A stretch of DNA of 64,000 nucleotides from NCBI RefSeq assembly GCF_037975245.1, contig NC_092567.1:8678714-8742713 (forward strand), in the 5' to 3' direction. The notes under the pieces were generated by a model. It was not told the DNA's origin. It saw only the letters and a list, made by a program, of their open reading frames with translations, and searched no databases. A program made the position numbers and the translations under genes. Shown one piece after another: positions 3,701 through 62,875 of this stretch; the stretch's first letter is position 1; each line of letters starts with the position of its first letter. This DNA is from Apostichopus japonicus (Eukaryota; Echinodermata; Holothuroidea; Aspidochirotida; Stichopodidae).

Positions 3701-4787
3701 TACACAATGAATGAATCTACAAGTATACAATCAGAATAAACACTTATACAACTGTCAGGGTCATATCCAGGTCGTAAATATGGCCACGGTTCATTTAGTT
3801 TTGTTGCTGATAAGGAAAAAAGAAGCAGTTATTCACTTGTTGAAATGAATTCATTGCGTCATAATTTGCGATGTTTTACATGAATCATGGTGGTATGCTG
3901 ATTAAAACTGAACAAAATTATATTGTCATAGTAACATGGTGGACAAGTAAAAAGAAAAAGAAAGGAAAATAAAACAGAAAAGAACCCGAAGGAGAGGTGT
4001 TGTGTTCCTGGGAATACAGTTAGAAGAGATCTGTGGGTTATTGTATTCCGTCGGTCGCACATCCGGGGTTTTCCTCCCGTCAAATCGCAGCGAATAGGGT
4101 GAAAACATGTAAAGTAAATGTGTCTAAATATCGCGAGTCTACGCTTTCAGAACATATGACGAGAAAGATGAATACTCTACGCATAGACCTCTAGGCATAA
4201 GAATGCAAGCTAAAGTTGTGCACATTTCGTGACGGGTGGGCTAGGTGCTTCACCGTTTACATAACGCGTTGCCAATTTTTCAACAATATTGTTTGCTCTC
4301 AATAAATCAACAATTACGTAAGACATGATCTGAACTGTTGAAGAACCATAAACCCGATTTTTGCATACCTAATTAAAGTACGTCACTATATCTTCTCTCA
4401 ACTTTGTTGACCGATTTCGTATGTATACACACGCTCAGTTATCTCAACACTACACATTGTTTTAACCCCAGCCACATGACGTAATACACATTAGGACGAC
4501 AAACTCGGCGATACATAGTTTAATAGTTTTATAGATAAATTTGATAAATAAAACCAAGGTGAAGAGTGTTTGACCTGTAAATTGAAGCAAGTTTGAACAC
4601 TTCACTGTTCATCAATCTGACTTCAAGCATTAACGTTGTTTTGGTTTCGATGATAATCGTAACGTATGCATTCATGCAGACGGAGAGTGTGTGTGTATGT
4701 CTATATGTGGGTGTGTTTGTATTATCGGACCTCCAAGGACGATGACTTGACTACACACCTTTTGTCTGAGGACGTACAGGTATGTAC

Positions 4788-4821: not shown

Positions 4822-5150
4822 GTAAACACGATATCTCAAGTAGGGCAGCTTGGAACAATCTAAACTTTGGTGTATATACGTACCACATTGAGTAGAAGAA
4901 CCCTATTGTTTTGTGGGGAGGTCATTTGCGGTCACTTGGGGCCAAATACTTAAAATTTTGTAAACACGACATCTCAAGGAACTAAACTTGTACCAATCTC
5001 ATATTTCGTGAATAGGAGGACCACATTGAGGAGCAACAGCCTATGTTTTTTTTGTGGAGATCATAGGTCATTGGGGTCATCGGGGGTAACATTTTGGAAA
5101 ACCTTGTTTATAAGCTACCGTATCTCTCACCAGCCAACCTATCAGATAAC
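4822..5150. repeat. Diverged tandem repeat, about 138-144 bp period (block 1)
   Basis: The phrase GTAAACACGATATCTCAAG recurs at 4822 and 4960 with one mismatch, and a third, weaker start is at about 5104. Within each unit ACATTGAGTAGAAGAACC and a purine-rich GGTCATTTG-type motif recur in the same order. The units are too diverged to be a recent expansion. No reading frame is kept. Confidence 0.65.
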
Positions 5151-5965: not shown

Positions 5966-8091
5966 GAGGTGCGTATAGCCACGTATAGTAGACTGACCTG
6001 TGTTATCATGCCATATTGTTATTGTAACATCTAGTTCTGGTTATACTAACAAGCAGAAGTCTAGTGCATTGAAGTCATCGAAATATCAATGCATTTTGCA
6101 TTCTGGTTATCTTTGGAAAGGAGGGGTGGGGGTGGGCTCCAAATATGACTTGCGTCCGTTGGGAGGGGTCTAAACGGGGAGAACCCTTTTATTAAAATAT
6201 AACCTTTAATAAATAGTTTTCAATGCTGTAGCAATATAAATTATTAGTGCAACAATTATTTCCAATATATTACCTACATGTGTACATTGAGTTGTTGTGT
6301 CCGCTATAGCCCTAACATTATATATAAGATTAGTGAAATATTCGAACGCGCCTGTTTTAACCAGTCACTGGATAGATACGGAAAACTAACGATTGTAAAG
6401 AAACGTTTTACATAAGAAGTAGCAGTATTTATGCGTTAATTATGCTAATTAGATACAAGGAACATAACCTACTGTATATATTATCTTTCCATTGTCCGGA
6501 GTAGTGTTTTACATAGAACTGGGCAATTCAAGTATAAGGTAGGATGATACTGAGCTAGACTTTAACATATTTATTGGATATTATGCACTATCTGTTACCG
6601 GTTAATTCCACATAATTTCATTTCATGCTCGATAAACTCAAGTGCCCTGTTGTTGTTGTGTGTTTGTAACGAGTGCCTTTATGTCTAAAAATTTGCTATC
6701 TGGCTTCAAAATAATAATATTGATAAAATATGCAGTTCAAAAGTACCGGTATATATAAAGAAAACTTTTGCTGAAAACATTCAAATACGGTACTTGAACC
6801 TGTGGAAAGGACTGCACAGATTATTTATTTTGAGAGGGTTTCAGATAATTTGACAGTCTAGTGGTTTCTTGCGTAAAATCGAAGTCACATTTTCCCCTGT
6901 CCCTCAGTGGTTGTGCCTCCATATTCCAATAAAACTTTTCTTTTGCGATTCAACGACGATGGCATTAGTGTATTCTTAACAAAGTATGACCAGGAAGTCT
7001 TAATAACTCCTCGGTATAAAGGGGGTCGGATATTTTAGACACATGCAGCCCTTCATTGAGAACATAGTTGAATAGGAAGATTCGATTGTGTAATGGTTAA
7101 GGTAATTATTATCAACTCCACAAAAAAAGTTATAATTTTGTACAATTTGATTTAGATCAATGACAAAAAACAATGCGTGCAATGTGATAAAATTATTGAA
7201 TGTTGCTATTGAATAAATACTTAAATAACGTTGGTATATCATATGATAGTAACAATTTGTGTTTGACTTCCACCCGAGATGACAAATTGTTGCGCCCAGT
7301 AAAGAATGTTGCTATGTCCTCGACCCTCCTATCCCTCTACCTTCTATTTCTCCTCCATTTTAGTGCAAGATTGTGCAGGTTTGTAATTCCGAAATTACGT
7401 TGAAAAATATAATTTGTAGCATCTTAAACTTTTCTGAGATTAAGAAACAATTTTCAGCTTTATAAGATTCATAATTTCTAGATTTTACATTTTACCACTG
7501 CAATCTAACAATCTCAGACATTTTAGGTCTCATTTAAAAGTAAGAAGGGTTCACGAAAACGATCTATATTATCAATCAATTTACCGAAAATAACATACGG
7601 AAAAAATCACGTGATCCGAGCGGAAAATAGCAAGCGGTTGTTACAAGGATTTGCTCCGTTTACTTAGTTTATTGTGTACAATGTTGTATTTCTACATGTT
7701 TGAACAACTTTAAATGAATTGATAATTTAAGCATACAGACAATTTAGCCAATTATGATCATGTGGACAGCTATACTTTTCACAGTTACTACCAACCGCAT
7801 ATAATTTACATACGGTAGAGCAGTTCCAACTATCATCATTATTATCTGCAACACTATATCCACTCTAATTTATTTTTCTTGGAATCGTTGAAACACAAGA
7901 CCTGTGATTATAATTAATTCTGATTAGAATGATCAATTAGGTGTGATTTATTTCCTTGTTATTTGTTATTTACTTTGTCTATTTTGTTGTTTATCTTCAT
8001 TGATTTAGTAAACAATAAACCTGACTAGGAGGACATTCCTCTACGTCTTCTACATCTTATAACACGATGATTACTCCACTTCTCTCCATAG

Positions 8092-8650: not shown

Positions 8651-9402
8651 GTGAAAATTTGGGCAATATGCTGAGAATTTTGCGTGCACCTACCAGTGGC
8701 GGAGCGTCCATAAAGTCAAAAGGGGGCGGAAGCCCCCCTGGCGGACTCAAATGGACTGCTGGCGCCCTTTCAGCTTTTTACCACTTTTTACTTATTCGCG
8801 ATTATTGACTTTTTTTATTGCGCTCTCAAATACCTATTGACATTTGTCACATTTTGTTGGTGCAATTTTCTGACAAATGGCGATGACACCTATTTATTCT
8901 TCGTTTATCTGCAAATTAGCAAGGCCCGGAAAGGGTCATTTCCGGCGATCTAGGGAGTAACTTTACTCAAAAAATTTCTGTACGCTCCGCGCCAACCTGT
9001 GGTGACGCTCCGCTTAGATAGTGTCAAAAGCGCCCCTACAGACCATTCTCCCCCCCCCCCCCCGACCAATACCCCCTAGCTCCGCCACTGGCACCTAGTG
9101 AAAAATGAAGAATTTGCAATGTGTTTTTCAATGGTTAAACTTATATTATTATTATTATTATCATTATTGTTGTAACGACTTCCCCAATAATTCTAACCAA
9201 TATGGAAGGGTAATAACACGGAAAATGATTTTATGTTATTGGCAGGTGATGTAATAACTGATGGATGCCTATATGATATGCACATTAACATTTGGAACGC
9301 GCGCGGACCGCGCGAAAAAAATTTGGTTATATTTTTCGGGCAAGTCGTTACAGCCCCACCAAATCAAATGAGGCTCCTACGCCTACCCCCCCCCCCCCCC
9401 GG
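8651..9402. repeat. Unclassified interspersed repeat, copy A (interrupted)
   Basis: It shares a segment containing AATATGCTGAGAATTTT, a TAATAACACGG...ATGATT segment, CCTATATGATATG and TATTTTTCGGGCAAGTCGT with 14389-14697 in the same order. Both copies end in GAGGCTCCTA or CAGGCTCCTA next to a long C run. Copy A is interrupted by the MITE at 8694-9090; copy B shows the uninterrupted site. No clean left terminal inverted repeat was found. The reading frame at 9233-9541 lies inside this repeat and is not credible as a gene. Confidence 0.6.
8694..9090. mobile_element. hAT-like MITE (397 bp) with terminal inverted repeats and target-site duplication
   Basis: It starts CAGTGGCGGAGC and ends GCTCCGCCACTG, perfect inverted termini of 12 bp. 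It is flanked by GCACCTAC (8686-8693) and GCACCTAG (9091-9098), an 8-bp duplication with one mismatch, the size typical of hAT elements. The related repeat at 14389-14697 carries the empty site (CACCTACTGAAAG). The element holds no transposase frame. Its right half contains GACGCTCCGCTTAGA, the block shared with other MITEs in this window. Confidence 0.85.
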
Positions 9403-12506: not shown

Positions 12507-13245
12507 ATATGGGGAGCGATTGATATGGGGAGGGATCTAAGGGGAGGGGAGTCCTGTTTTGAACAATTGAAGGTCCTTAGATGCGATCTGGAGCAATGTT
12601 TTGCCAATTTCATCATGATCATATGATATCATATTATCAGCAGATTTTATTTCCGTTTTGAAATATTCTTTCAGAAAGACAAACATAGTGCTATTTTACA
12701 ATTATTCCAGTAGGATGATTCTTGTTGTCCAATGTCTGGACTTTAATACATTTGACTAACTTAACTGAAAGACAATATAAACTCTCGTATTTAGCAGTGT
12801 AATAATTATTTATAGGAAGCGCGTATCACGTACGATTGCTAGCTTAGCTTCATAACATGCTGTTCTTGCGAAAACTTATGAAGAATCATAGAAAGGATGA
12901 GAACGCACGTTGTCGTCGTCGTTGTGTATACGGTTCGTGACTCTTCACCGAGTGCGGTTAGGTAGGCTATATGTATTTTATTACGCAGTGGCCAACTGTA
13001 GGCTGGTAATAGGTAATAGGCTACTGGCTAAATTTAGCTAATTGCATCTGCCAAACTAAGTAGCTGAATCAGTAGGCCTAAATGTTACTACGAATATAAT
13101 CGAGTGAACGGAGCTGACGTGTATTCAAGATCAAAAGAGCACTGACAAAATACCATGCCATAAAAATCCAACAGTATTTACCATTTTTTCGACACTGAAA
13201 GGTATGGAGCAGTTGCTCCCACTGCTCCTCCTGGCTACGTCTCTG
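12506..13245. mobile_element. Nested hAT-like element, left end lost, in copy 1
   Basis: From ATTGATATGGGGAG to CTCCTGGCTACGTCTCTG it matches the nested element at 21729-22589, including the G-rich block (12521-12555), the AGGTCCTTAGATGCGATCTGG segment and the AGGCTATATGYATTTTATTACGCAGTGG region. The right flank ATATATAC occupies the same site of the host element as GTATATCC at 22590. Copies 1 and 2 therefore share one ancestral insertion. Confidence 0.7.
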
Positions 13246-13734: not shown

Positions 13735-13885
13735 CAGACGTATCCAGAATTTTTCTAACCCGGGTGGCGCGACTTACTATCCAAGCGGAGCGCCACCTTC
13801 GGTTGGAGCGCAGTGTACAAGAACATTTCTGGTTTTGATACCCCCCTCCCCCCAGATCACCGGAAATGGCACTTCTCGGGCTTGA
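13735..13885. mobile_element. hAT-like element fragment
   Basis: CAAGCGGAGCGCCACC, then GGTTGG, GCGCAG and GTACAAGAACATTT recur in the same order and spacing as in the element at 44293-45317. The left end is about ACAGACGTATCCAGA; no matching right end was found, so this is a fragment. Confidence 0.55.
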
Positions 13886-19678: not shown

Positions 19679-19955
19679 CAGGAACGTAGCCAGCCAAAGG
19701 GGGCGAAAGGGGCGACCGCCCCCTCCTTGAGCATATTTTGTATATATTTTTTTATGATATCGTTATTAATTTCAAAATAGAAAATGCGTAGATGCTACTT
19801 ACAACGCCTGGGAAGTGCCATTTTCAGCGATCTGGGAGTCATTTTCGGCCAAAAATGTTCTTATGCGCTTCGCACCAACTCATGGTGGCGATACGCTTAC
19901 ATAGTTTGCCTTCAGGCTTCGCCCCTCGCTTGGCAAATTCCTCGCTACGCGCCTG
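19679..19955. mobile_element. hAT-like MITE (277 bp) with perfect 8-bp target-site duplication
   Basis: It starts CAGGAACGTAGCCAG and ends CTCGCTACGCGCCTG; the termini are imperfect inverted repeats. The flanks at 19671-19678 and 19956-19963 are both AAAGGGAG. It contains GGTGGCGATACGCTTACATAG near the right end, related to the GCGGAGCG block of other elements here. There is no coding capacity; the frames at 19559-20035 cross the element and are not genes. Confidence 0.85.
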
Positions 19956-21421: not shown

Positions 21422-22997
21422 CAGGGACGTAGCTAAGGCCTGATGATTGGGGGGGGGAGGGGGGGGTGTAGTGGCTGAAATTCCAACTGGATGGGTTTTG
21501 GAGTCAGAAAATTCCGACTGCTGCCTTGTACCCCCCGCATTCATCGTCAACGATACGGTCAGTGTCAGTCAGACACCCCATCTTTCGCGACTGCACTTTT
21601 GTTCCGAACTTTTTTCAATACATTTGTACCTTATGGGGCAAGTTTTTGCTTATGTTGATGGCACTTTTAAACTTCCGTAGATTAGCATTGAGTGTTTTAA
21701 TTGTATACCATAGAGACAATGTATATCCCAACGTCGTAGCCAGGAATTTGAAAGGGGAAGCACTTTTTGCGGTTGATATTGGGGAGGGGTCTAAGGGGAG
21801 GGGGTGTCCCCATCCCCTTTGAGATTTTTTTGAACAATTGAAGGTCCTTAGATGCGATCTGGTGCAATTTGTTGCCAGTTTCATCATTACATATGATATC
21901 ATATTATCAGCAGGTTTTGTTTCCTGTTTGAATTCTTTAACATGTTCTTTTACATAATATATCAGAAAGACAAACATAGTGCTCTTTTACAATTTTTCCA
22001 GAAGGATGATTCTTGTTAATTGTCCAATGTCTGGACTTAAATACATTTGACGAACTTAATTGATGGACAATATAAACTTTCATATTTTGTAAGACAGCCA
22101 GATTTGCAGTGGCCTAAAAAAAAATATCGTTATCTCCGTGTCTTAACAGTGTAATAATTATTTATAGGAAGTGCGTATCACGTACGATTGCTAGCTTAGC
22201 TTCATAACATGCTGTTCGTGCAACAACTTAGGACGAATCATAGAACGGATGAGAACGAACTTGTCGTCGTCGTTGTGCATACGGTTGGTGACATTCCATC
22301 GAGTGAGGTTAGGTAGGCAATATGCATTTTATTACGCAGTGGCCAACTGTAGGTTTGAAATAGGCTATAGGCTAAATTCATCTAATTGCATCTGCCAAAT
22401 TAAGTAAGTAGTTGAATCAGTAGGCCTGCATGTTATTACGATTATAATCGAGTTAACGGAGCTGACGAGTATTCAAGATCAAAAGAGCACTGACAAAATA
22501 CCATGCTAAAAACAACAGTTTTTAAACATTTTGTTCGACACTCAAAGGGGGGAGCAGTCGCTCCCCTGCCCCTCCTGGCTACGTCCCTGGTATATCCTGA
22601 ACTTACTTTAAGCTAGCGAACAGGTTCGACCCACCCAATAGCAAAATTAATACATAAATTTTCCGAATTGAAGCTGGCGAACGGTTTATTTTTTTTTTAG
22701 AGTATTCAAAATCATACGAAGTTTTGTATGGTGGAGTATAAGGATCGCGAGATACAATTTCTCAATGTGACGAGGAAAACGTGGTAAATATGACTGATTA
22801 AAGGTCAATTTTGATCGAAAATTTTATGTCACTCACAAATTACAAGAAAATATGAAAATAAGAGTGCGACAGGCAGAAAAATTAGAGCGCGACAGTCGGA
22901 AATTCCGACTGTCGCACTCAAATTTTCCAGCTATCGTCATTTTTACCAAGATTGGGGGGGTGAGACACCCCCAAACCCCCCTCTAGCGACGTCCCTG
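21422..22997. mobile_element. hAT-like non-autonomous element, copy 2, carrying a nested element
   Basis: It starts CAGGGACGTAGCTAAGG and ends CTAGCGACGTCCCTG, which are inverted repeats. The flanks at 21414-21421 and 22998-23005 are both CACACCCG, a perfect 8-bp target-site duplication. A long G run follows the left end and a G/C-rich tract precedes the right end. Compared with the copy at 58509-59779 it lacks about 650 internal bases after 21628 but carries an inserted element at 21729-22589. No transposase frame is present; the short frames at 21236-21977 are shadows of repeat sequence. Confidence 0.9.
21729..22589. mobile_element. Nested hAT-like element (861 bp)
   Basis: It starts CAACGTCGTAGCCAGGA and ends TCCTGGCTACGTCCCTG, which are inverted repeats with a few changes at the left end. 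The flanks at 21721-21728 and 22590-22597 are both GTATATCC. The uninterrupted host sequence is visible at about 59375-59400, which confirms the insertion. The G-rich block at 21774-21820 lies 45 bp from the left end. Confidence 0.9.
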
Positions 22998-34650: not shown

Positions 34651-36202
34651 TATGTGATAGGTAAGCTATCGATCATATTAATATTATGTGATAGGTAAGC
34701 TATCGATCATTTTAATATTATGTGATAGGTAAGCTATCGATCATTTTAATATTACATGATGGGTAAGCTATCGATCATTTTAATATTATGTGATTGGTAA
34801 GCTATCGATCATTTTAATATTATGTGATTGGTAAATTATCGATCATTTTAATATGATGTGATAGGTAAGCTATCGATCATTGTAATATTATGTGATAAGT
34901 AAGCTATCGATCATTTTAATATTATGTGATAGGTAAGCTATCGATCATTTTAATATTACATGATGGGTAAGCTATCGATCATTTTAATATTATGTGATAG
35001 GTAAGCTATCGATCATGTTAATATTATGTGATAGGTAAGCTATCGATCATTTTAATATTACATGATGGGTAAGCTATCGATCATTTTAATATTATGTGAT
35101 TGGTAAGCTATCGATCATTTTAATATTATGTGATTGGTAAATTATCGATCATTTTACTATTACATGATGGGTAAGCTATCGATCATTTTAATATTATGTG
35201 ACAGGTAAGCTATCGATCATGTTAATATTATGTGATAGGTAAGCTATCGATCATTTTAATATTACATGATGGGTAAGCTATCGATCATGTTAATATTATG
35301 TGATAGGTAAGCTATCGATCATTTTAATATTACATGATGGGTAAGCTATCGATCATTGTAATATTATGTGATAAGTAAGCTATCGATCATTTTAATATTA
35401 TGTGATAGGTAAGCTATCGATCATTTTAATATTACATGATGGGTAAGCTATCGATCATTTTAATATTATGTGATTGGTAAGCTATCGATCATTTTAATAT
35501 TATGTGATTGGTAAATTATCGATCATTTTAATATGATGTGATAGGTAAGCTATCGATCATTGTAATATTATGTGATAGGTAAGCTATCGATCATGTTAAT
35601 ATTATGTGATAAGTAAGCTATCGATCATTTTAATATTATGTGATAGGTAAGCTATCGATCATTGTAATATTATGTGATAGGTAAGCTATCGATCATTTTA
35701 ACATTACATGATAGGTAAGCTATCGATCATTTTAATATTATGTGACAGGTAAGCTATCGATCATTTTAATATTATGTGATAGGTAAGCTATCGATCATTT
35801 TAACATTACATGATAGGTAAGCTATCGATCATTTTAATATTATGTGATAGGTAAGCTATCGATCATTTTAATATTATGTGATTGGTAAGCTATCGATCAT
35901 TTTAATATTATGTGATTGGTAAATTATCGATCATTTTAATATGATGTGATAGGTAAGCTATCGATCATTGTAATATTATGTGATAAGTAAGCTATCGATC
36001 ATTTTAATATTATGTGATAGGTAAGCTATCGATCATTTTAATATTACATGATGGGTAAGCTATCGATCATTTTAATATTATGTGATTGGTAAGCTATCGA
36101 TCATTTTAATATTATGTGACAGGTAAGCTATCGATCATTTTAATATTACATGATGGGTAAGCTATCGATCATTTTAATATTATGTGATAGGTAAGCTATC
36201 GA
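34651..36202. repeat. 34-bp tandem array, 46 copies, with higher-order structure
   Basis: The unit runs from TATGTGATAGGTAAGCTATC through GATCATTTTAATAT. Starts at 34651 and 36181 are exactly 45 periods apart, with no length change in between; the last unit breaks off in the unique sequence after CTATCGAC. Variants recur in fixed order: GATAGG, ACATGATGGG, GATTGG, GATTGG with AAATTATC, GATAGG with CATTGTAA, GATAAG, GATAGG. This order is seen around copies 3-10, 23-30 and 36-42. The AAGCTATCGATCAT core is nearly invariant. Each unit can fold as GATAG-GTAAG-CTATC. It lies 4 kb downstream of the LRR gene, and no function is known. Confidence 0.98.
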
Positions 36203-44292: not shown

Positions 44293-45317
44293 CAGGGGCG
44301 TCGTGCGAAAATAAATTTTTGGGGGCCCGTGAGCAGGTGATGACTATCTAAGCGGAGCGCTACCACGGGTTGGCGCGCAGCGTACAAGAACATTTTTCGT
44401 CTGGCAGACCCCTCAGATTGCAGGAAACGGCACTTCCCGTGCTTTATGGCAGTAAGCAACACCCCTAAAATTGATCAAAATTTACGGCAATTTTTTTTAT
44501 TTTGGGAAATATTCTCGAAGGAAGTGATCGCCATTTATTCCTCAGTTTACCAATTCCTCGTCTCACAGAAGCGCCCAAAATTGAAGACATTTTTGTGTTG
44601 GCTGATCCATGATCGCCGCCCATGCCCGTGAGAAGTGGTGACTGGGTAAAGAAAAAACGATGCCGTTTGAAAACATGGGCAGAAAAAGCGAAAGTAGCGA
44701 AACCTAAGGTAAAACGCGCGATAACGAAGTGATTATTTTCCAGGTTAATTGTGACTGTATTTGAAATGATTATTATTATTCATTTTTTTCAAAACTACCT
44801 GTCAGATCATGAGGAAAATGTATCCTAGTGGACCTTTTAGCGAACTGATTGCATTACTTAAGAAGAAGTTCACATGGAGTCCCATAATCTCTGTTCACTA
44901 CATTTATCTTAACTTTCCGAACTTTGTTACAGGCTTAGAAAACAATTAAAAAATTTGCCATTTTTTCATGGAAAATTGACTGACTTTGGCAAAGGTAACG
45001 GGTTGCCCTTACTCTGGGACTACGTATATATAATATTGTTCAACGATGGCAGCGTTGATGGCACATTTGGTTCATTAGTTATCAACCAGTAATTATTTAA
45101 CTGTTTCGATTGACTGAATATCAACAATTAACCAATTAACCATTGACCAAGCAGTCAATAGAAGCCCCATTTCTCGTAAGCCCTACAAGAAATTCAGTTG
45201 CTGACACTGTTCGAAAACACTTTTTTTAAAATTATGGCAAAATTTTATGACACCTTTGACAAAATTTGGGGGGCCTGTGCCCCCCCCCCCCAGGCCCCAA
45301 TGGGCACGACGCCACTG
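44293..45317. mobile_element. hAT-like non-autonomous element (1,025 bp)
   Basis: It starts CAGGGGCGTCGTGC and ends GGGCACGACGCCACTG, which are inverted repeats. The flanks ACAGAGAC (44285-44292) and ACGGAGAC (45318-45325) form an 8-bp duplication with one mismatch. CTAAGCGGAGCGCTACC lies about 57 bp from the left end, then CGCAGCGTACAAGAACATTTT, shared with 13780. A C run precedes the right end. The frames at 44280-44631 and 45198-45398 are fragments without transposase motifs. Confidence 0.88.
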
Positions 45318-50894: not shown

Positions 50895-51209
50895 CATATA
50901 CTCACTGGCGGATCCAGGGCCTTTGTTTGGGAGGGGCCAAAGTGGCATTAGAGTGATATGGGGGAGGGGTCTAAGGGGAGGGGGTGCCCCCCTCCCCTTT
51001 GGAAAATGTTCTATTGCTGAATGCCCTCAGATGCAATCTGGTGCGACAAAAGTGTACAAAAGTGTACAAAGTGTAAAATATTTATAAAACAAAGTTGGGA
51101 TCATCTTTCTCAAGAAATTTTATTTCTCATAGGTTATATATTTCTTACAACCAGCCTGTAACTGCAAAATGGTGTTAAACTGTAAATCCTCATGCTCATA
51201 CATTTACAT

Positions 51210-52190
51210 AGCTCCCAACTCTTGAGAAGGCAAATACTGGTCCATGCCACGAATCGCCGTCCTGGGGGAGGGGTATAAGGGGAGGGGGTGTCCCCCTCCC
51301 CTTTTGAATTATTTTTGGAATCCTGGTGATGCCTACATGTAAAATGGTGGCACTTAGAAAGGCTTTTGTCACCCAAAATTTTCTGAGAAATATGCATTTT
51401 TTTGTGTGTAACATCAATAAATTGAATAGTAGGTGATAATTCATTCTTTCCCGTGGCATGAAAATGTTCGCTGCTCGCCCCAATGAAAAGAATTATAGGC
51501 TAATTTGAGGTTCAAATGATGCTGTAAAGTAAGGTGACCATATTTACCTGACTGGAATCAGGGACATTTATTGCGTGACTGATATGGGGGAGGGGTCTAA
51601 GGGGAGGGGCTGTCCCCCTCCCCTTTTGAAAAATTTCAAGTGCCTAAGGTGCTTAGATGTAAAATGGTGATACTTAGAAGCACTTTTTAAGTCGATTTTA
51701 TTTTCAAAAATGTAGCTTTCCTTAGATGAAATTTACTTACTTTACGAATGAGTGCTAGGCTAGATCGATCTAGCATATTCCACTTTACACTGGCCCAACT
51801 GAAATACTGGCTAGTTCCGTTCTGCGACTGCACACTTGACTAAATTCTGTTTTTACAATTGTTTTACTAATAATGTGGGATATTTTCGAAATTCCTGAAC
51901 ATTTTGCGAATCAGGGACATTTTCGGGGACACTTGTTCATCGGGGACAACACACTGTAATCGGGGACTGTTCCCGAAAATCGGGGACGTCTGGTCACCTT
52001 ACTGTAAAGGAGGTTTTATACTCTATTATGCTAAATGCTAAAGAAATGATGGTTGCTAAGTCAAAATTTGATGCAAATTTTTTTATGTATACTTGACAAT
52101 TACAATGCGGTTTTTCGGACGCTTGTGCGGGTCAGCGGGTTTGGGTGTTAGAATGCGGGTCTAATTCCCGCGAATTGCGGGTCAGTTGGG
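51210..52190. mobile_element. Second-level nested element
   Basis: TAGCTCCCAACT near 51210 and AGTTGGGAGCTCTG near 52180-52190 are inverted repeats. The flanks CATTTACA and CATTTAAT agree at six of eight positions, so the exact ends are uncertain. The G-rich block at 51263-51304 lies 53 bp from the left end. The right subterminal part contains TTCCCGCGAATTGCGGG, a short palindrome. Confidence 0.65.
51530..52001. mobile_element. Innermost nested element (472 bp)
   Basis: It starts TAAGGTGACCA and ends TGGTCACCTTA, perfect inverted termini of 11 bp. The flanks 51522-51529 and 52002-52009 are both CTGTAAAG, a perfect 8-bp duplication. The G-rich block is at 51581-51626, 51 bp from the left end. 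The right part contains repeated CGGGGAC(A/T) phrases. A close relative lies inverted at 62344-62875. Confidence 0.92.
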
Positions 52191-53393
52191 AGCTCTGCAT
52201 TTAATTTTAAACCAGAAAACGAAAAGGTTAAGTCTAGTCTACCACTGCTATTCCTCTCGATTTTTTTAATTTCCAATCATATGATTTAGCGGATGTTCGG
52301 AAACACTTTTTGGCTCACCTTTGGGGGGGGGGCATGGCCCCCCTTGGCCCCCCTTGGATCCGCCAGTGCATATACTGACGAAAAGCTTCGGGAAATTTTA
52401 AACGGGTATACATTCGTTGCAACGAATTGATTCAGACATTTTGCTTACCGCGAAGTACAAGGTTTCTATATTTATATACTTCCGACCAATCATGAGCGAC
52501 TATTTACACACAATTGCAAACTTGTTTGGGGAAAAACGCGACCGGGTAGGGCCTGGGTACGCTCCCCATCCAGATTTGTAAAACTGGTTAATAAAAAGGA
52601 ACCTGTTAATTTTTGTAAATTGAAAGTGTCCTTTCCTTATTTAAAAATGTCGTTTTGTTGATAAATTAAGAAATATTTCATTTGAAAGTGCCTTTTTTTG
52701 TTTAACCCCCCCCCCCCCCCTTCGCAGCCCATGCCAAAAAAGGTAGATTGCCATACAGGAATAGTGTGTGTATTTGGGCATACATGGTAAAATGACAAAC
52801 TATTTTAAGAAATTCATGCATTCACTTGGGAAGAAGGAGATATGACATTAAGGAAACAGATACATCTATTGGAAACGTATTTATTATTGTATGAAGAAAT
52901 GATACATAAAAAGATGTATTAGGGTATGAATGTAAAATTTCAGTTCCAAGATAAAATGGTTGAGTTTGTTACATCACGATTGTCCATGATACCGTACGGA
53001 TCGAATTCCTGTCGGATAACTAAACCATTTTGTTACACAAAATGAAAAATAGCCGCCTGTATGATACGTTGAATAGCGAGTTACATTCTGGTACATTAAA
53101 CAAATAAACCATGTAGTAAATAGTATATAATTCAAAGAACAATTCACAATCAACCCCCCCCCTCCCCCACACACACACACACACCGCTACAATTACCACT
53201 CCATGTCAGTTTTTGCAGATACATATAAGGACACTACAAAAAAACAAAACATTAACAAGTAATTCCTGTTAATGATTCATTGTCTTCATAGCAAAAGTGG
53301 CAGAATGTAGCAACATTTTGCATCTAAGCACCCTTCCATTTTACAAAAGTGCATTCCTGGGGTGCATCGAATGAACCCAAAAGCCTATTTGTT

Positions 53394-55073: not shown

Positions 55074-56400
55074 CTACTTGTTAAGAAAAAGTCGCCTAGG
55101 AAAGAACCTGGGCACGAAAACCAAACTACCGAACGACTGATGCGCTCTCAACCCCAGTCCTGCAGCACTAAAAGAACAATCTCCATATGTGACTTTGTTA
55201 GTATGAGGAATGATTAGAGAAAGATGACTTTGGGACCGTAATGCCCTAGCTGGCGTGTAGCGTTTAACTAAATCAGACATATAACCCGGAGATTGATCAT
55301 TAAGAACACGAAAAACGTGCAGAATGAGTTTGTAATTTATCCGGCGATGAATTGGTAACCAATGCAGGTCTCGGAGTACAGGAGTTATATGTTCGTAACG
55401 ACGGGTTCTGGTGATGATTCTGGCAGCCGTATTCTGGACCCTCTGTAGTTTTTTGATTGAGGAGCATGACGTTCCATTCAAGAGAGCATTACAGTAATCG
55501 AGACGAGATGTAACCAGTGAATGGACGAGAGACTTGGTTACCTCCTCGTTAAGGGATAGACGAATTCTCCCGATGATACGTAATTGGCTGTAACAAGACC
55601 GACTAATTAAATTTATATGGTTTTTCATGGACAAATATGAGTCAAATAACACACAAAGATTCCGTACTGATGACGAGGGTGGAATGACATCATTGCCCAT
55701 TCTCAATGAAGGAAGGTGGATCGTTCGTTTGCTATGCTTTGAATGGAAAATTATCATGTCTTGTCATCGTTAAGCTTAAGCATGTTAACAGCCATCCATT
55801 TTCTGACATCTTCAAGACATGTCTCCAATATATGTAGAGGATTAATTGCATCAGGAGAATCAAGTGGCTTAAACGAAAGGTAAATTTGGGTGTCGTCGGC
55901 ATACATATGGTAATCAAGGCCATGCTGCCTCATAAGATCGCCCAGTGGTTTAGTATACATGGAGTATAACTTTGGTCCTAGTACTGATCCCTGAGGAACA
56001 CCATATTTAAGTAACAGAGGTGCAGATTTTATGTTATCAATGATGACGGACTGGCGTCTATTTTGAAGATAAGAAGTCATCCATTTTAAGGCGTTTCCGG
56101 TTATCCCATACATATTACGAAGCCGATTTAGCAAAATTGAGTGATCGATGGTGTCAAATGCAGCAGATAAATCCAGTAAAACTAATGCTACTGCCTTTCC
56201 GTCGTCTATGTTATGCACGATGTCGGACTGTACCTTGATTGGGGTTGTTTCGGTCGAATGTAACTTGGTATAGGCACTTTGATATTTTTCTTGAAGTTCG
56301 TTGTCGTCCATGTACTGATCGAGGCGCCGAGCAACAACTTTCTCTAATACCTTTGGCAAGAAGCTAAGGTTTGAGACAGGTTTTGTACGAAGTATAGGAG
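55074..56400 (-). pseudogene. Non-LTR retrotransposon reverse transcriptase, 5'-truncated and frameshifted (CR1/L2-like)
   Basis: The upstream frame (56359-55754, and about 30 bases above it reading KPVSNLSFLPKVLEK) holds the RT fingers and palm. It has a HSTET segment near residue 34, motif A LLDLSAAFDTIDH near 61-73, motif B GVPQGSVLGP near 120-129 and the catalytic YADDTQIY near 153-160. It stops at TGA 55756-55754. The downstream frame (55757-55074) continues with the thumb and C-terminal region: LVTSRLDYCNALLNG, then LQRVQNTAARIIT and LHWLPIHRRI. The two frames overlap in ATGA and differ by -1, as expected from one lost base in KT-E/M-IIFHSK. An AFDT(I/V)DHS motif A is typical of CR1/L2-type LINEs. 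No endonuclease domain is present, so the copy is 5'-truncated and dead. It would have primed reverse transcription at nicked genomic DNA. Confidence 0.92.
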
Positions 56401-62343: not shown

Positions 62344-62875
62344 TAAGGTGACCAGACCTCCCCGATTTTCGGGGACAGTCCCCGATTACAGTGTGCTGTC
62401 CCCGATGAACAAGTGTCCCCGAAAATGTCTCCGATTCGTCAAAATGTTCAGGAATTTCGAAAATATTCCACATTATTAGTAAAATAATTGAATAAAAAAA
62501 ATTAGTCAAGTGAGCAGTCGCAGAACGGAACTTATAACCAGTATTTCAGGTGGGCTAGTGTAAAGTGGAAACACTGTTAAAATATGCTAGCTCGATCTAG
62601 CCTAGCACTCTTTCTACCGTATAATTGGCAACTACGGCGACACAACCACGATTATATTGTGAGCATAACCACTCACAAGCTCTCAAAGAATCACGTAAAG
62701 TAAATGAATTTCATCTAAGAAAAATCTACATTTTTGAAAATAAACTTCATTTAAAAAACAGTGCTTCTAAGTATCCCCATTTTACATCTAAGACACCCCC
62801 TCCCCTTAGACCCCTCCCCATATCAGTCACGCAATAAATGTCCCTGGTTCCAGTCAGGAAAATATGGTCACCTTA
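62344..62875. mobile_element. hAT-like element (532 bp), inverted relative of 51530-52001
   Basis: It starts TAAGGTGACCAGACC and ends ATGGTCACCTTA. The flanks TAGTATGG (62336-62343) and TAGTAGGG (62876-62883) form an 8-bp duplication with one mismatch. The reverse complement follows 51530-52001 throughout, with the G-rich block at 62794-62825 on the opposite strand, 50 bp from its end, and the repeated CCCCGAT phrases at the other end. The frames at 62324-62509, 62625-62837 and 62761-62967 cross this element and are not genes. Confidence 0.9.

What the first reader, a model, noticed from the sequence alone, without database searches (positions are those of the whole stretch)
50903..52001. One G-rich, hairpin-capable block sits about 50 bp from one end of elements with different termini
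A block of two G4-A-G4/5 runs separated by TCTAA, followed by its own C-rich complement (GGGGAGGGGGTGTCCCCC type), occurs at 50955, 51263 and 51581. It recurs at 21774 and, on the other strand, at 62825; degenerate copies are at 12521 and 6159. Distances from the nearest element end are about 52, 53, 51, 45 and 50 bp, although the four terminal sequences differ (CACTGGCGGATCC, AGCTCCCAACT, TAAGGTGACCA, CAACGTCGTAGCC). Homology extends about 60 bp further inwards (CTTAGATG...ATCTGGTGC type). The block has four G runs, so a quadruplex is possible as well as a hairpin. It could be a transposase-binding or replication signal retained while the ends diverged or were exchanged.
Basis: partly seen in the sequence, partly recalled or inferred. 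Interest (0 to 1): 0.75.

Follow-up and report, generated by a model that had tools for sequence, protein, structure and literature searches.

The report
Swappable recognition block in hAT transposons
The G-rich block is part of a roughly 100-base stretch near one end of many different cut-and-paste jumping genes of the hAT kind in this genome, probably the place where their enzyme grips the DNA, and the stretch seems to have been swapped between families whose enzymes are only distantly related.

Summary
The block is real: its core occurs 3,028 times in the 671.6-Mb genome, against 0 for the reversed control. It belongs to a ~100-bp module whose TCTAA lies 58-77 bp inside the tip in 66 of 70 copies with an assigned tip. 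Families with different tips carry it, most with signs of 8-bp target duplications. It lies downstream of the transposase gene, reading inward, in DUF4371 (Tip-type) hAT elements; one is a complete 5,064-bp A-family element with TSD TTTAAAAT. A second module ("type 2", TCTAAGCGGAGCGCCACCAT, 5,748 exact copies) takes the same place in other families, so quadruplex potential is not general. A hairpin is not general either: some type 1 copies lack the C-rich arm. Module type disagrees with transposase phylogeny (one origin of type 1 rejected, AU p=0.004 to 4e-7), and one tip (D) occurs with both types. Best reading: a subterminal transposase-binding module at one end, analogous to Hermes left-end repeats, exchanged between families as a cassette. 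Position and mismatch with phylogeny are shown. Binding is inferred and untested. The copy at 6159 is not supported.

The parts
50903..52368 (+). H element, termini CACTGGCGGATCC..GGATCCGCCAGTG, TSD CATATACT; hosts the nested B and C elements
50951..51047 (+). type 1a module of the H element (G blocks, C arm, AT stretch, CAGATGCAATCTGGTGC tail)
   Evidence: nhmmer E=4.7e-27
51209..52194 (+). B element, termini TAGCTCCCAACT..AGTTGGGAGCT; no clear TSD; nested in H
51246..51355 (+). type 1a module of the B element
   Evidence: nhmmer E=1.3e-27
51530..52001 (+). C element, TAAGGTGACCA..TGGTCACCTTA, TSD CTGTAAAG, nested in B
51570..51675 (+). type 1a module of the C element
   Evidence: nhmmer E=4.9e-27
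62344..62875 (-). second C element, TSD TAGTATGG/TAGTAGGG
62792..62841 (-). type 1 module of the second C element; C arm and spacer deleted in this copy
21766..21870 (+). type 1a module next to the D tip (CAACGTCGTAGCC at 21729)
12519..12597 (+). degenerate type 1 module (D-like tail)
   Evidence: nhmmer E=1.7e-8
8919..9018 (-). type 2 module (TCTAAGCGGAGCGTCACCACAGG..), tip CAGTGGCGGAGCTAGG upstream; inner limit approximate
13780..13880 (+). type 2 module, tip CAGACGTATCCAGAA; inner limit approximate
19802..19901 (-). diverged type 2 module, tip CAGGCGCGTAGCGAGG; inner limit approximate
44347..44446 (+). type 2 module, tip CAGGGGCGTCGTGCG; inner limit approximate

Best explanation
The block is the outer half of a ~100-bp cis module in the 3' subterminal region of DUF4371-type (Tip-group) hAT transposons and their short derivatives. 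Type 1 reads TGGGGGAGGGG-TCTAA-GGGGAGGGGG-TGT-CCCCCTCCCC, then an A/T stretch (TTTGGAAATTTT), then about 15-25 bp, then YTYAGATGCAATYTGGTGC. Other families carry type 2 in the same place: ACTATCTAA-GCGGAGCG-CCACCATCGGTTGGC-GCGGAGCG-TAC-AAGAAAATTTT..CAGATNNCNGGAAANGGCAC. Most likely the module is where several transposase N-terminal zinc fingers bind GC-rich direct and inverted repeats beside an A/T stretch. That would mark this end and load the transposase before it cuts at the tip. Because the tip and the module are separate signals, the module could be replaced while the tip stayed, and modules have passed between families. Shown: position, location 3' of the gene, sharing across divergent families, conflict with the transposase tree, and one tip with two modules. 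Inferred: protein binding, and the route of exchange (insertion plus deletion, or gap repair with template switching).
For: Position: TCTAA at 58-77 bp from the tip in 66 of 70 type 1 copies with a family-assigned tip; G lies at 86-91 and L086 at 102; type 2 at 40-83 in 33 assigned copies. Complete A element, TSD TTTAAAAT on both sides, 5,064 bp, 752-aa open frame with DUF4371 and hAT-dimer domains, type 1 module 3' of the gene; complete L082 element (4,373 bp, TSD CACCCGGA) with type 2 on the same side. Of 18 DUF4371 loci, 8 (5 lineages) carry the module at an end confirmed by TSD or by the boundary between copies, 7 at a probable own end, 3 do not; in all 15 it is 3' and reads inward. 0 of 5 non-DUF4371 hAT loci show either module in the stretches fetched. 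Cross-family BLAST hits of the MITEs lie mostly in the module (listing cut short). Mismatch with descent: type 1 not one clade, p-AU 0.0038 (firm labels without D), 7e-6 (with D), 3.9e-7 (all labels). D tip, 53-58 bp: type 1 copy L042 is 92% identical to three D copies with type 2; L075 and L109 are 97% alike right up to that tip. TGATATGG, next to the G block in C, D and H, remains beside type 2 in the D copies, so type 1 was probably replaced there. Analogy: Hermes binds its left end through BED fingers on a quasi-palindrome of repeats that needs an A/T-rich region, its right end with none (PMC10368747, abstract and passages).
Against: No binding or transposition data. The 5' tip was reached in only two elements. 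The L078 family (866-aa frame) has neither module at its end, so not all members need it; none was found for L063; the type 2 module near L080 sits in a 288-bp MITE. Only 3 of 10 further, mostly broken DUF4371 loci showed a 3' module. Type 1b lacks the palindrome. Homology of types 1 and 2 is not significant by local alignment (57 of 500 shuffles as good). A generic tip finder put only 50 of 65 type 1 copies at 60-74 bp (4 at 48-55, 3 at 86-91, 8 at 103-104); the last 8 probably are D copies whose tip its pattern misses. The 13 type 1 D copies trace to one insertion, so the swap rests on one type 1 and three type 2 insertions. Labels of L080, L081 and L085 were revised after the first tree.
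Confidence: 0.62

Rival explanations
1. No exchange: the module is ancestral to Tip-type hATs and kept by selection; types 1 and 2 arose by descent, and the apparent conflict comes from long branches or wrongly assigned ends.
For: Both types share the order TCTAAG(S)GGAG(S)G .. AAAATTTT .. AGATG and lie on the same side. Three end branches are flagged as long. Most single branches place type by only 3 changes on the tree.
Against: AU tests reject one clade even with firm labels only. The same near-identical type would have to arise at least twice. One D tip carries both types.
Confidence: 0.18
2. The working feature is a DNA or RNA structure: a cruciform/hairpin or a G-quadruplex formed by the block.
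For: Four type 1a copies fold at -12.0 to -15.2 kcal/mol, z -2.2 to -2.7. Four G runs with short loops fit the usual quadruplex pattern (rule recalled).
Against: Type 1b copies, including elements with long transposase frames (L070, L086), lack the C arm; L070 does not fold. Type 2 has no G runs and folds weakly (z about -1, two copies).
Confidence: 0.12
3. The module ends or slows transcription of the transposase gene (a 3' pause or terminator), since it lies downstream of the stop codon.
For: 3' and inward in all 15 module-bearing DUF4371 elements of the first batch; in the sense strand type 1a reads AAAGGGGAGGGGGACACCCCC. G5AG5 pause sites are known in mammals (recalled, no call).
Against: Gene-less MITEs keep it at the same offset. 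The offset is held relative to the tip, whereas the distance from the ORF varies from 244 to 2,918 bp (single ORFs, some genes split).
Confidence: 0.1
4. The module is itself a small mobile or satellite unit that happens to insert near transposon ends.
For: Tandem copies spaced 138 bp occur (G family L052 and L073). Three of 60 fetched loci (L017, L019, L050) got no assigned tip.
Against: Near-fixed offset and orientation; no solo module with its own ends or TSD was recognised, though none was searched for systematically; the tandem copies in L052 and L073 lie inside G elements.
Confidence: 0.04

Closest known systems
Hermes (hAT) left-end subterminal repeats bound by BED zinc fingers (PMC10368747, abstract and passages seen)
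   Same: One end specially marked; quasi-palindromic repeats, helped by an A/T-rich region, inside the tip; hAT superfamily with 8-bp target sites.
   Different: The Hermes quasi-palindrome lies within the first 27 bp and its AAGT repeats recur through the ends; here a ~100-bp GC-rich block lies ~60 bp in, is shared almost letter for letter by distant families, and occurs in two alternative types.
Tip group of hAT transposons: Tip100 of Ipomoea, BuT2 of Drosophila (PMC3942097 and PMC12511174, passages seen)
   Same: DUF4371 plus hAT dimer domain (BuT2), 8-bp TSD, Tip100 TIR CAGGGGCGGAG, transposases of 643 and 808 aa.
   Different: No such subterminal module is mentioned in the passages seen; the Tip100 and BuT2 DNA sequences were not compared here.
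Tol2 / Ac / Tag1 end requirements and subterminal repeats (named in PMC10368747 passages)
   Same: hAT ends need about 100-200 bp, with repeated short motifs in Tol2 and Ac.
   Different: Different motifs; sharing of one motif block between separate families is not described in those passages.

Membership tests
hAT superfamily | 8-bp target-site duplication | tested here: met
   A: 8 of 8 in 15 of 21 copies (5 had no right end found, 1 unclear); G: 8 of 8 in 1 of 2 (other: no right end); H: 8 of 8 in 1 of 1; C: 8 of 8 and 7 of 8 in 2 of 3 (third: no right end); D: 7 letters agree after a 1-base shift in 2 of 13; E: 6 letters agree after a 2-base shift in 5 of 6; F: 6 of 8 in 1 of 2; B: none. 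Autonomous L066 and L082: 8 of 8
hAT superfamily | short terminal inverted repeats | tested here: met
   inverted ends found with TSDs for A, C, G, H and for autonomous L066 and L082
hAT superfamily | transposase with hAT dimerisation domain PF05699 | tested here: met
   six of six long ORFs scanned; of these L064, L066, L068 and L070 bear a module
hAT superfamily | catalytic DDE triad | not tested
   residues not aligned to a solved hAT transposase
Tip group of hAT | DUF4371 (PF14291) in the transposase | tested here: met
   P0001, P0002, P0003, P0005, P0006 over cut-off, P0004 (L069) not; PF14291 hits at the 18 loci of the first batch
Tip group of hAT | transposase clusters with Tip100/BuT2 in a tree | not tested
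   reference sequences not held; tree of local sequences only
Hermes-type subterminal transposase binding site | demonstrated binding of N-terminal zinc fingers | not testable with these tools
   a CxxC..H..H pattern is visible by eye near the N-termini of P0001 and P0002; no binding data
Hermes-type subterminal transposase binding site | one end marked more than the other | tested here: met
   module at the 3' side only, in the two confirmed full-length elements L066 and L082; 5' tips not reached elsewhere
G-quadruplex signal | G runs kept in the corresponding position of all families | tested here: not met
   type 2 has no such G runs
hairpin signal | strong palindrome kept in all families | tested here: not met
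   type 1b lacks the C arm; type 2 z about -1

The most novel reading that the evidence does not exclude
Tip-type hAT transposons in this genome draw on a common pool of interchangeable subterminal recognition cassettes: the module is a trait that moves between transposon families independently of the transposase and of the tip. Families with about 25% identical transposases could then meet through shared cassettes and perhaps share or capture one another's transposases.
Probability: 0.35. Interest if true: 0.75.

Novelty: new variant of a known kind. Interest (0 to 1): 0.56.

Why it matters
How transposases tell their own ends from others, and how non-autonomous elements change partner, is a long-standing question. 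A near-identical internal recognition block shared by families with different tips, with an alternative block in the same place, offers natural swap experiments and a simple marker for finding Tip-type elements. If the blocks are exchanged, transposon classification by terminal sequence or by transposase alone misses a third, independently moving part.

Tried and rejected
Strict search for full-length elements (TSD and TIR within 4 mismatches) found none in 19 stretches; a search seeded on known 3' ends then found two with TSDs on both sides, L066 and L082.

First labels called L081 and L085 type 2. Reading the sequence showed, by eye, that those type 2 modules lie in an inserted element with TSD GTTGAGCG (L081) or in an adjacent element outside the end (L085), so they were relabelled type 1 (L081's own tip lies beyond the fetched stretch). 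L080's type 2 module proved to be in a 288-bp MITE with TSD GCGATTTC and was dropped. AU tests were rerun on firm labels.

A MITEs beside L070, in L077 and in L078, and the G MITE in L073, were first taken as possible own ends and rejected.

Homology of types 1 and 2: shared order of short words, but local alignment is no better than 57 of 500 shuffles; not claimed.

Search outside this genome: two exact-pattern scans of viral contigs, 0 hits each. No eukaryote collection other than this genome was available. I recall similarly built repeats from other invertebrates; that is memory, not evidence.

Papers: exact-sequence searches CACTGGCGGATCC and GGGGAGGGGGTGTCCCC found 0 papers; GCGGAGCGCCACC found one listing, on Drosophila nucleolar stress; word searches listed no title or abstract start that describes this module. 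Only open-licence PMC papers were searched, and of these only passages of PMC12511174, PMC10368747 and PMC3942097 were seen.

Full report
What was checked. The window is C7:8678714-8742713 of an unnamed 671.6-Mb genome in 35 contigs. The block is present as described at 50959, 51263, 51585 and 21779 (+) and, without its C arm, at 62821-62797 (-). The core GGGGAGGGGGTGTCCCCC occurs 1512+1516 times in the genome and the pattern read backwards 0 times. The copy at 12519-12597 is degenerate but significant; that at 6159 is not.

Anatomy. Sixty loci with flanks were fetched; the first 20 came from the exact core, the other 40 from patterns chosen to enrich rarer forms, so family frequencies here mean nothing. 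Fifty-seven fall into families by tip (L035 in two): A CAGTGGCGTAGGAAGG, B TAGCTCCCAACT, C TAAGGTGACCA, D CAACGWCGTAGCCAGG, E CAGGGATGAGAC, F CAGGGATGTGCC, G CAGGGGCGTAGCGAAGG; three (L017, L019, L050) were not assigned. H CACTGGCGGATCC comes from the window. A has perfect 8-bp duplications in 15 of 21 copies (5 without a right end, 1 unclear); single copies of C, G and H are perfect and a second C gives 7 of 8; D (2 copies) and E (5 copies) agree over the 7 and 6 letters that could be compared; F gives 6 of 8 in one copy; B has none. At 50903-52368 the three blocks of the finding are three elements nested in each other, H containing B containing C. Thirteen of 15 B copies share the H flank and all 13 D copies share their upstream flank, so these two families moved mainly as parts of larger units.

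The module. Aligned across families, the shared part runs from about 15 bp before the first G block to the tail GATGCAATYTGGTGC or GATGYAAAATGGTG, about 100 bp. Elsewhere the MITE families share little: their printed cross-family hits against the hAT loci lie mostly in the module (listing cut short). From tip to TCTAA the distance is 58-77 bp in 66 of 70 copies with a family-assigned tip; the exceptions are G (86-91; with tandem 138-bp copies of the module) and L086 (102). Thirty-three further rows of that call had no tip; most are probably the other arm of the palindrome read on the opposite strand, since a stricter pattern finds 71 sites in all. With that pattern and a generic tip rule, 65 of 71 sites got a tip: 50 at 60-74 bp, 4 at 48-55, 3 at 86-91 and 8 at 103-104; the last 8 probably are D copies whose tip the rule misses.

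Which transposons. PF05699 gave 150 scored hits and PF14291 60. The A family has a complete copy: L066 with its upstream extension, 5,064 bp, TSD TTTAAAAT on both sides, 752-aa open frame with DUF4371 and the hAT dimer domain, type 1 module about 470 bp downstream of the frame reading inward from the tip; L084 is a second copy, 97.5% identical over 4.5 kb and ending at the same tip. L064/L065 (804-aa frame in L064; tip CAGTGGCGGATCC or CAGTGGCGGAACC) carry it too, and L070 and L086 carry a form without the C arm. DUF4371 with the hAT dimer domain is reported for BuT2 of the Tip group, which includes Tip100 (PMC3942097 and PMC12511174, passages seen).

A second module. The 3' ends of other DUF4371 elements carry TCTAAGCGGAGCGCCACCATCGGTTGGCGCGGAGCGTACAAGAAAATTTT..CAGATNNCNGGAAANGGCAC instead. 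Its 20-letter start occurs 2844+2904 times exactly (control 0). The window holds copies with 3-4 differences over 31 letters at 9018(-), 13780(+) and 44347(+) and a more diverged one at 19901(-). L082 is a complete example (4,373 bp, TSD CACCCGGA).

Counts. First batch of 18 DUF4371 loci (15 lineages), chosen mostly for long frames: module at a firmly defined own end in 8 loci (L064, L065, L066, L084, L068, L071, L075, L082; five lineages; copy boundaries fall on the tip except L064/L065, within 19 bp of it); at a probable own end in 7 (L070, L074, L079, L081, L083, L085, L086; TSD pair not found; L074 is doubtful because its copies L073 and L076 diverge before the tip; L081's tip lies outside the fetched stretch); absent or not own in 3 (L063, L078, L080). 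In all 15 the module is 3' and inward; the one inward copy on a 5' side, in L070, is an A MITE with its own TSD. The 5' tip was reached only in L066 and L082. Second batch of 10 mostly broken DUF4371 loci, 3' stretches only: 3 of 10 with a type 2 module (L111 partial, L113, L117), 7 without; one of these (L114) is a cut near-copy of L081. Non-DUF4371 hATs: 0 of 5 within the roughly 5-kb stretches fetched (L061, L062, L067, L069, L072).

Exchange. In a maximum-likelihood tree of 17 transposases, L066/L084 (type 1) group with L068 (type 2) and L078 at 96/96, while L064 (type 1) sits in another starred clade (99/99) with L070, L081, L085 and L075. The type needs 3 changes on the tree. Holding type 1 together is rejected: p-AU 0.0038 with firm labels excluding L075, 7e-6 including it, 3.9e-7 with all labels; an earlier run with L080 still counted as type 2 gave 1e-13, and 0.001 when L086 was put among the others. 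Labels were revised after the first tree, which weakens the formal meaning of these values. Independently, the D tip occurs with type 1 (MITE, one insertion amplified; 13 copies) and with type 2 (L087, L099, L109; three different flanks): L042 is 92% identical to all three over 52-53 aligned letters and the window copy 88.5-90.6%, after which the sequences switch to different modules (the L055 comparison failed because its TGATAT is mutated). L075 and L109 agree at 97% up to exactly the D tip, so that chimeric end moved as a unit. The relic TGATATGG beside type 2 lies next to the G block in C, D and H, so in D type 1 was probably replaced.

Structure versus sequence. As single-stranded DNA the type 1a palindrome folds well in four copies (z -2.2 to -2.7), the type 1b L070 copy and the 62.8-kb copy do not, and type 2 is weak in two copies (z about -1). 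TAAGGGGAGGGG followed within 8 bases by AAAATTTT, that is, without the full C arm, occurs 71 times. So neither hairpin nor quadruplex is general; short GC-rich repeats next to an A/T stretch are. This resembles Hermes, where BED fingers bind a quasi-palindrome of repeats that needs an A/T-rich region, and only at the left end (PMC10368747, abstract and passages seen). In the A element the tail motif is repeated 78 bp further in (TTAGATGCAATTTGGTGC at 4844 and, with one mismatch, at 4922 of 5,064; shuffled mean 0), as binding repeats often are. In L082 the type 2 tail occurs once.

Reading. A 3' subterminal transposase-binding module of Tip-type hATs, retained by MITEs and exchanged between families. 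Shown: place, side relative to the gene, sharing, two types, conflict with phylogeny, one tip with two modules. Inferred: protein binding and the route of exchange. Not shown: any function, or the same module in another species.

Noticed in passing
L066 extended (element 5' end) and L082 5' end: The opposite ends also carry G/C-rich palindromes, about 15-45 bp from the tip (CAAGGGCGTAGGAACCGGGGGGCTGGGGGGCGCCAGCCCC; CAGGCCCGTAGTCAAGGGGGGGCGAAAGGGGGCGCCGCCCC).
   Followed up: no
L078 gene-sense end and L110: A DUF4371 family with an 866-aa frame ends in CAAGGGCGGCGGAAGC and has neither module; two copies were compared, a third hit with an 871-aa frame is listed.
   Followed up: partly
L063 about 4020-4230: Tip CATAGGCGTAGGAGCCC resembles that of type 2 copies L091, L096 and L101, but is followed by AAAATTTTTCCCGCGCTCCGCGCGC, perhaps a third or inverted module.
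   Followed up: no
L052, L073; C1:2188359-2189203: Copies of the module about 138 bp apart in tandem (seven cores at C1:2188359-2189203; several in G elements), a possible satellite seed.
   Followed up: no
L087/L075 and L109: The autonomous D element seems to have lost its type 1 module to a segment of about 750 bp (by eye) that begins CAGGGGCGTAGCCAG, holds a type 2 module and lacks its own outer tip.
   Followed up: partly
C2:4763940 and C1:20051305: A type 1 module without the C arm lies about 300 bp before verified B copies (L034, L027), at the place of the H module in the window; C4:24627927 and C7:10422278 have the same spacing but were not fetched. The arm may be lost repeatedly.
   Followed up: no
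window 55754-56359 (-): Reverse transcriptase (RVT_1) ORF, E=2.4e-24.
   Followed up: no
window 34651-36202: 34-bp tandem repeat, 45.6 copies, 91% matches.
   Followed up: no
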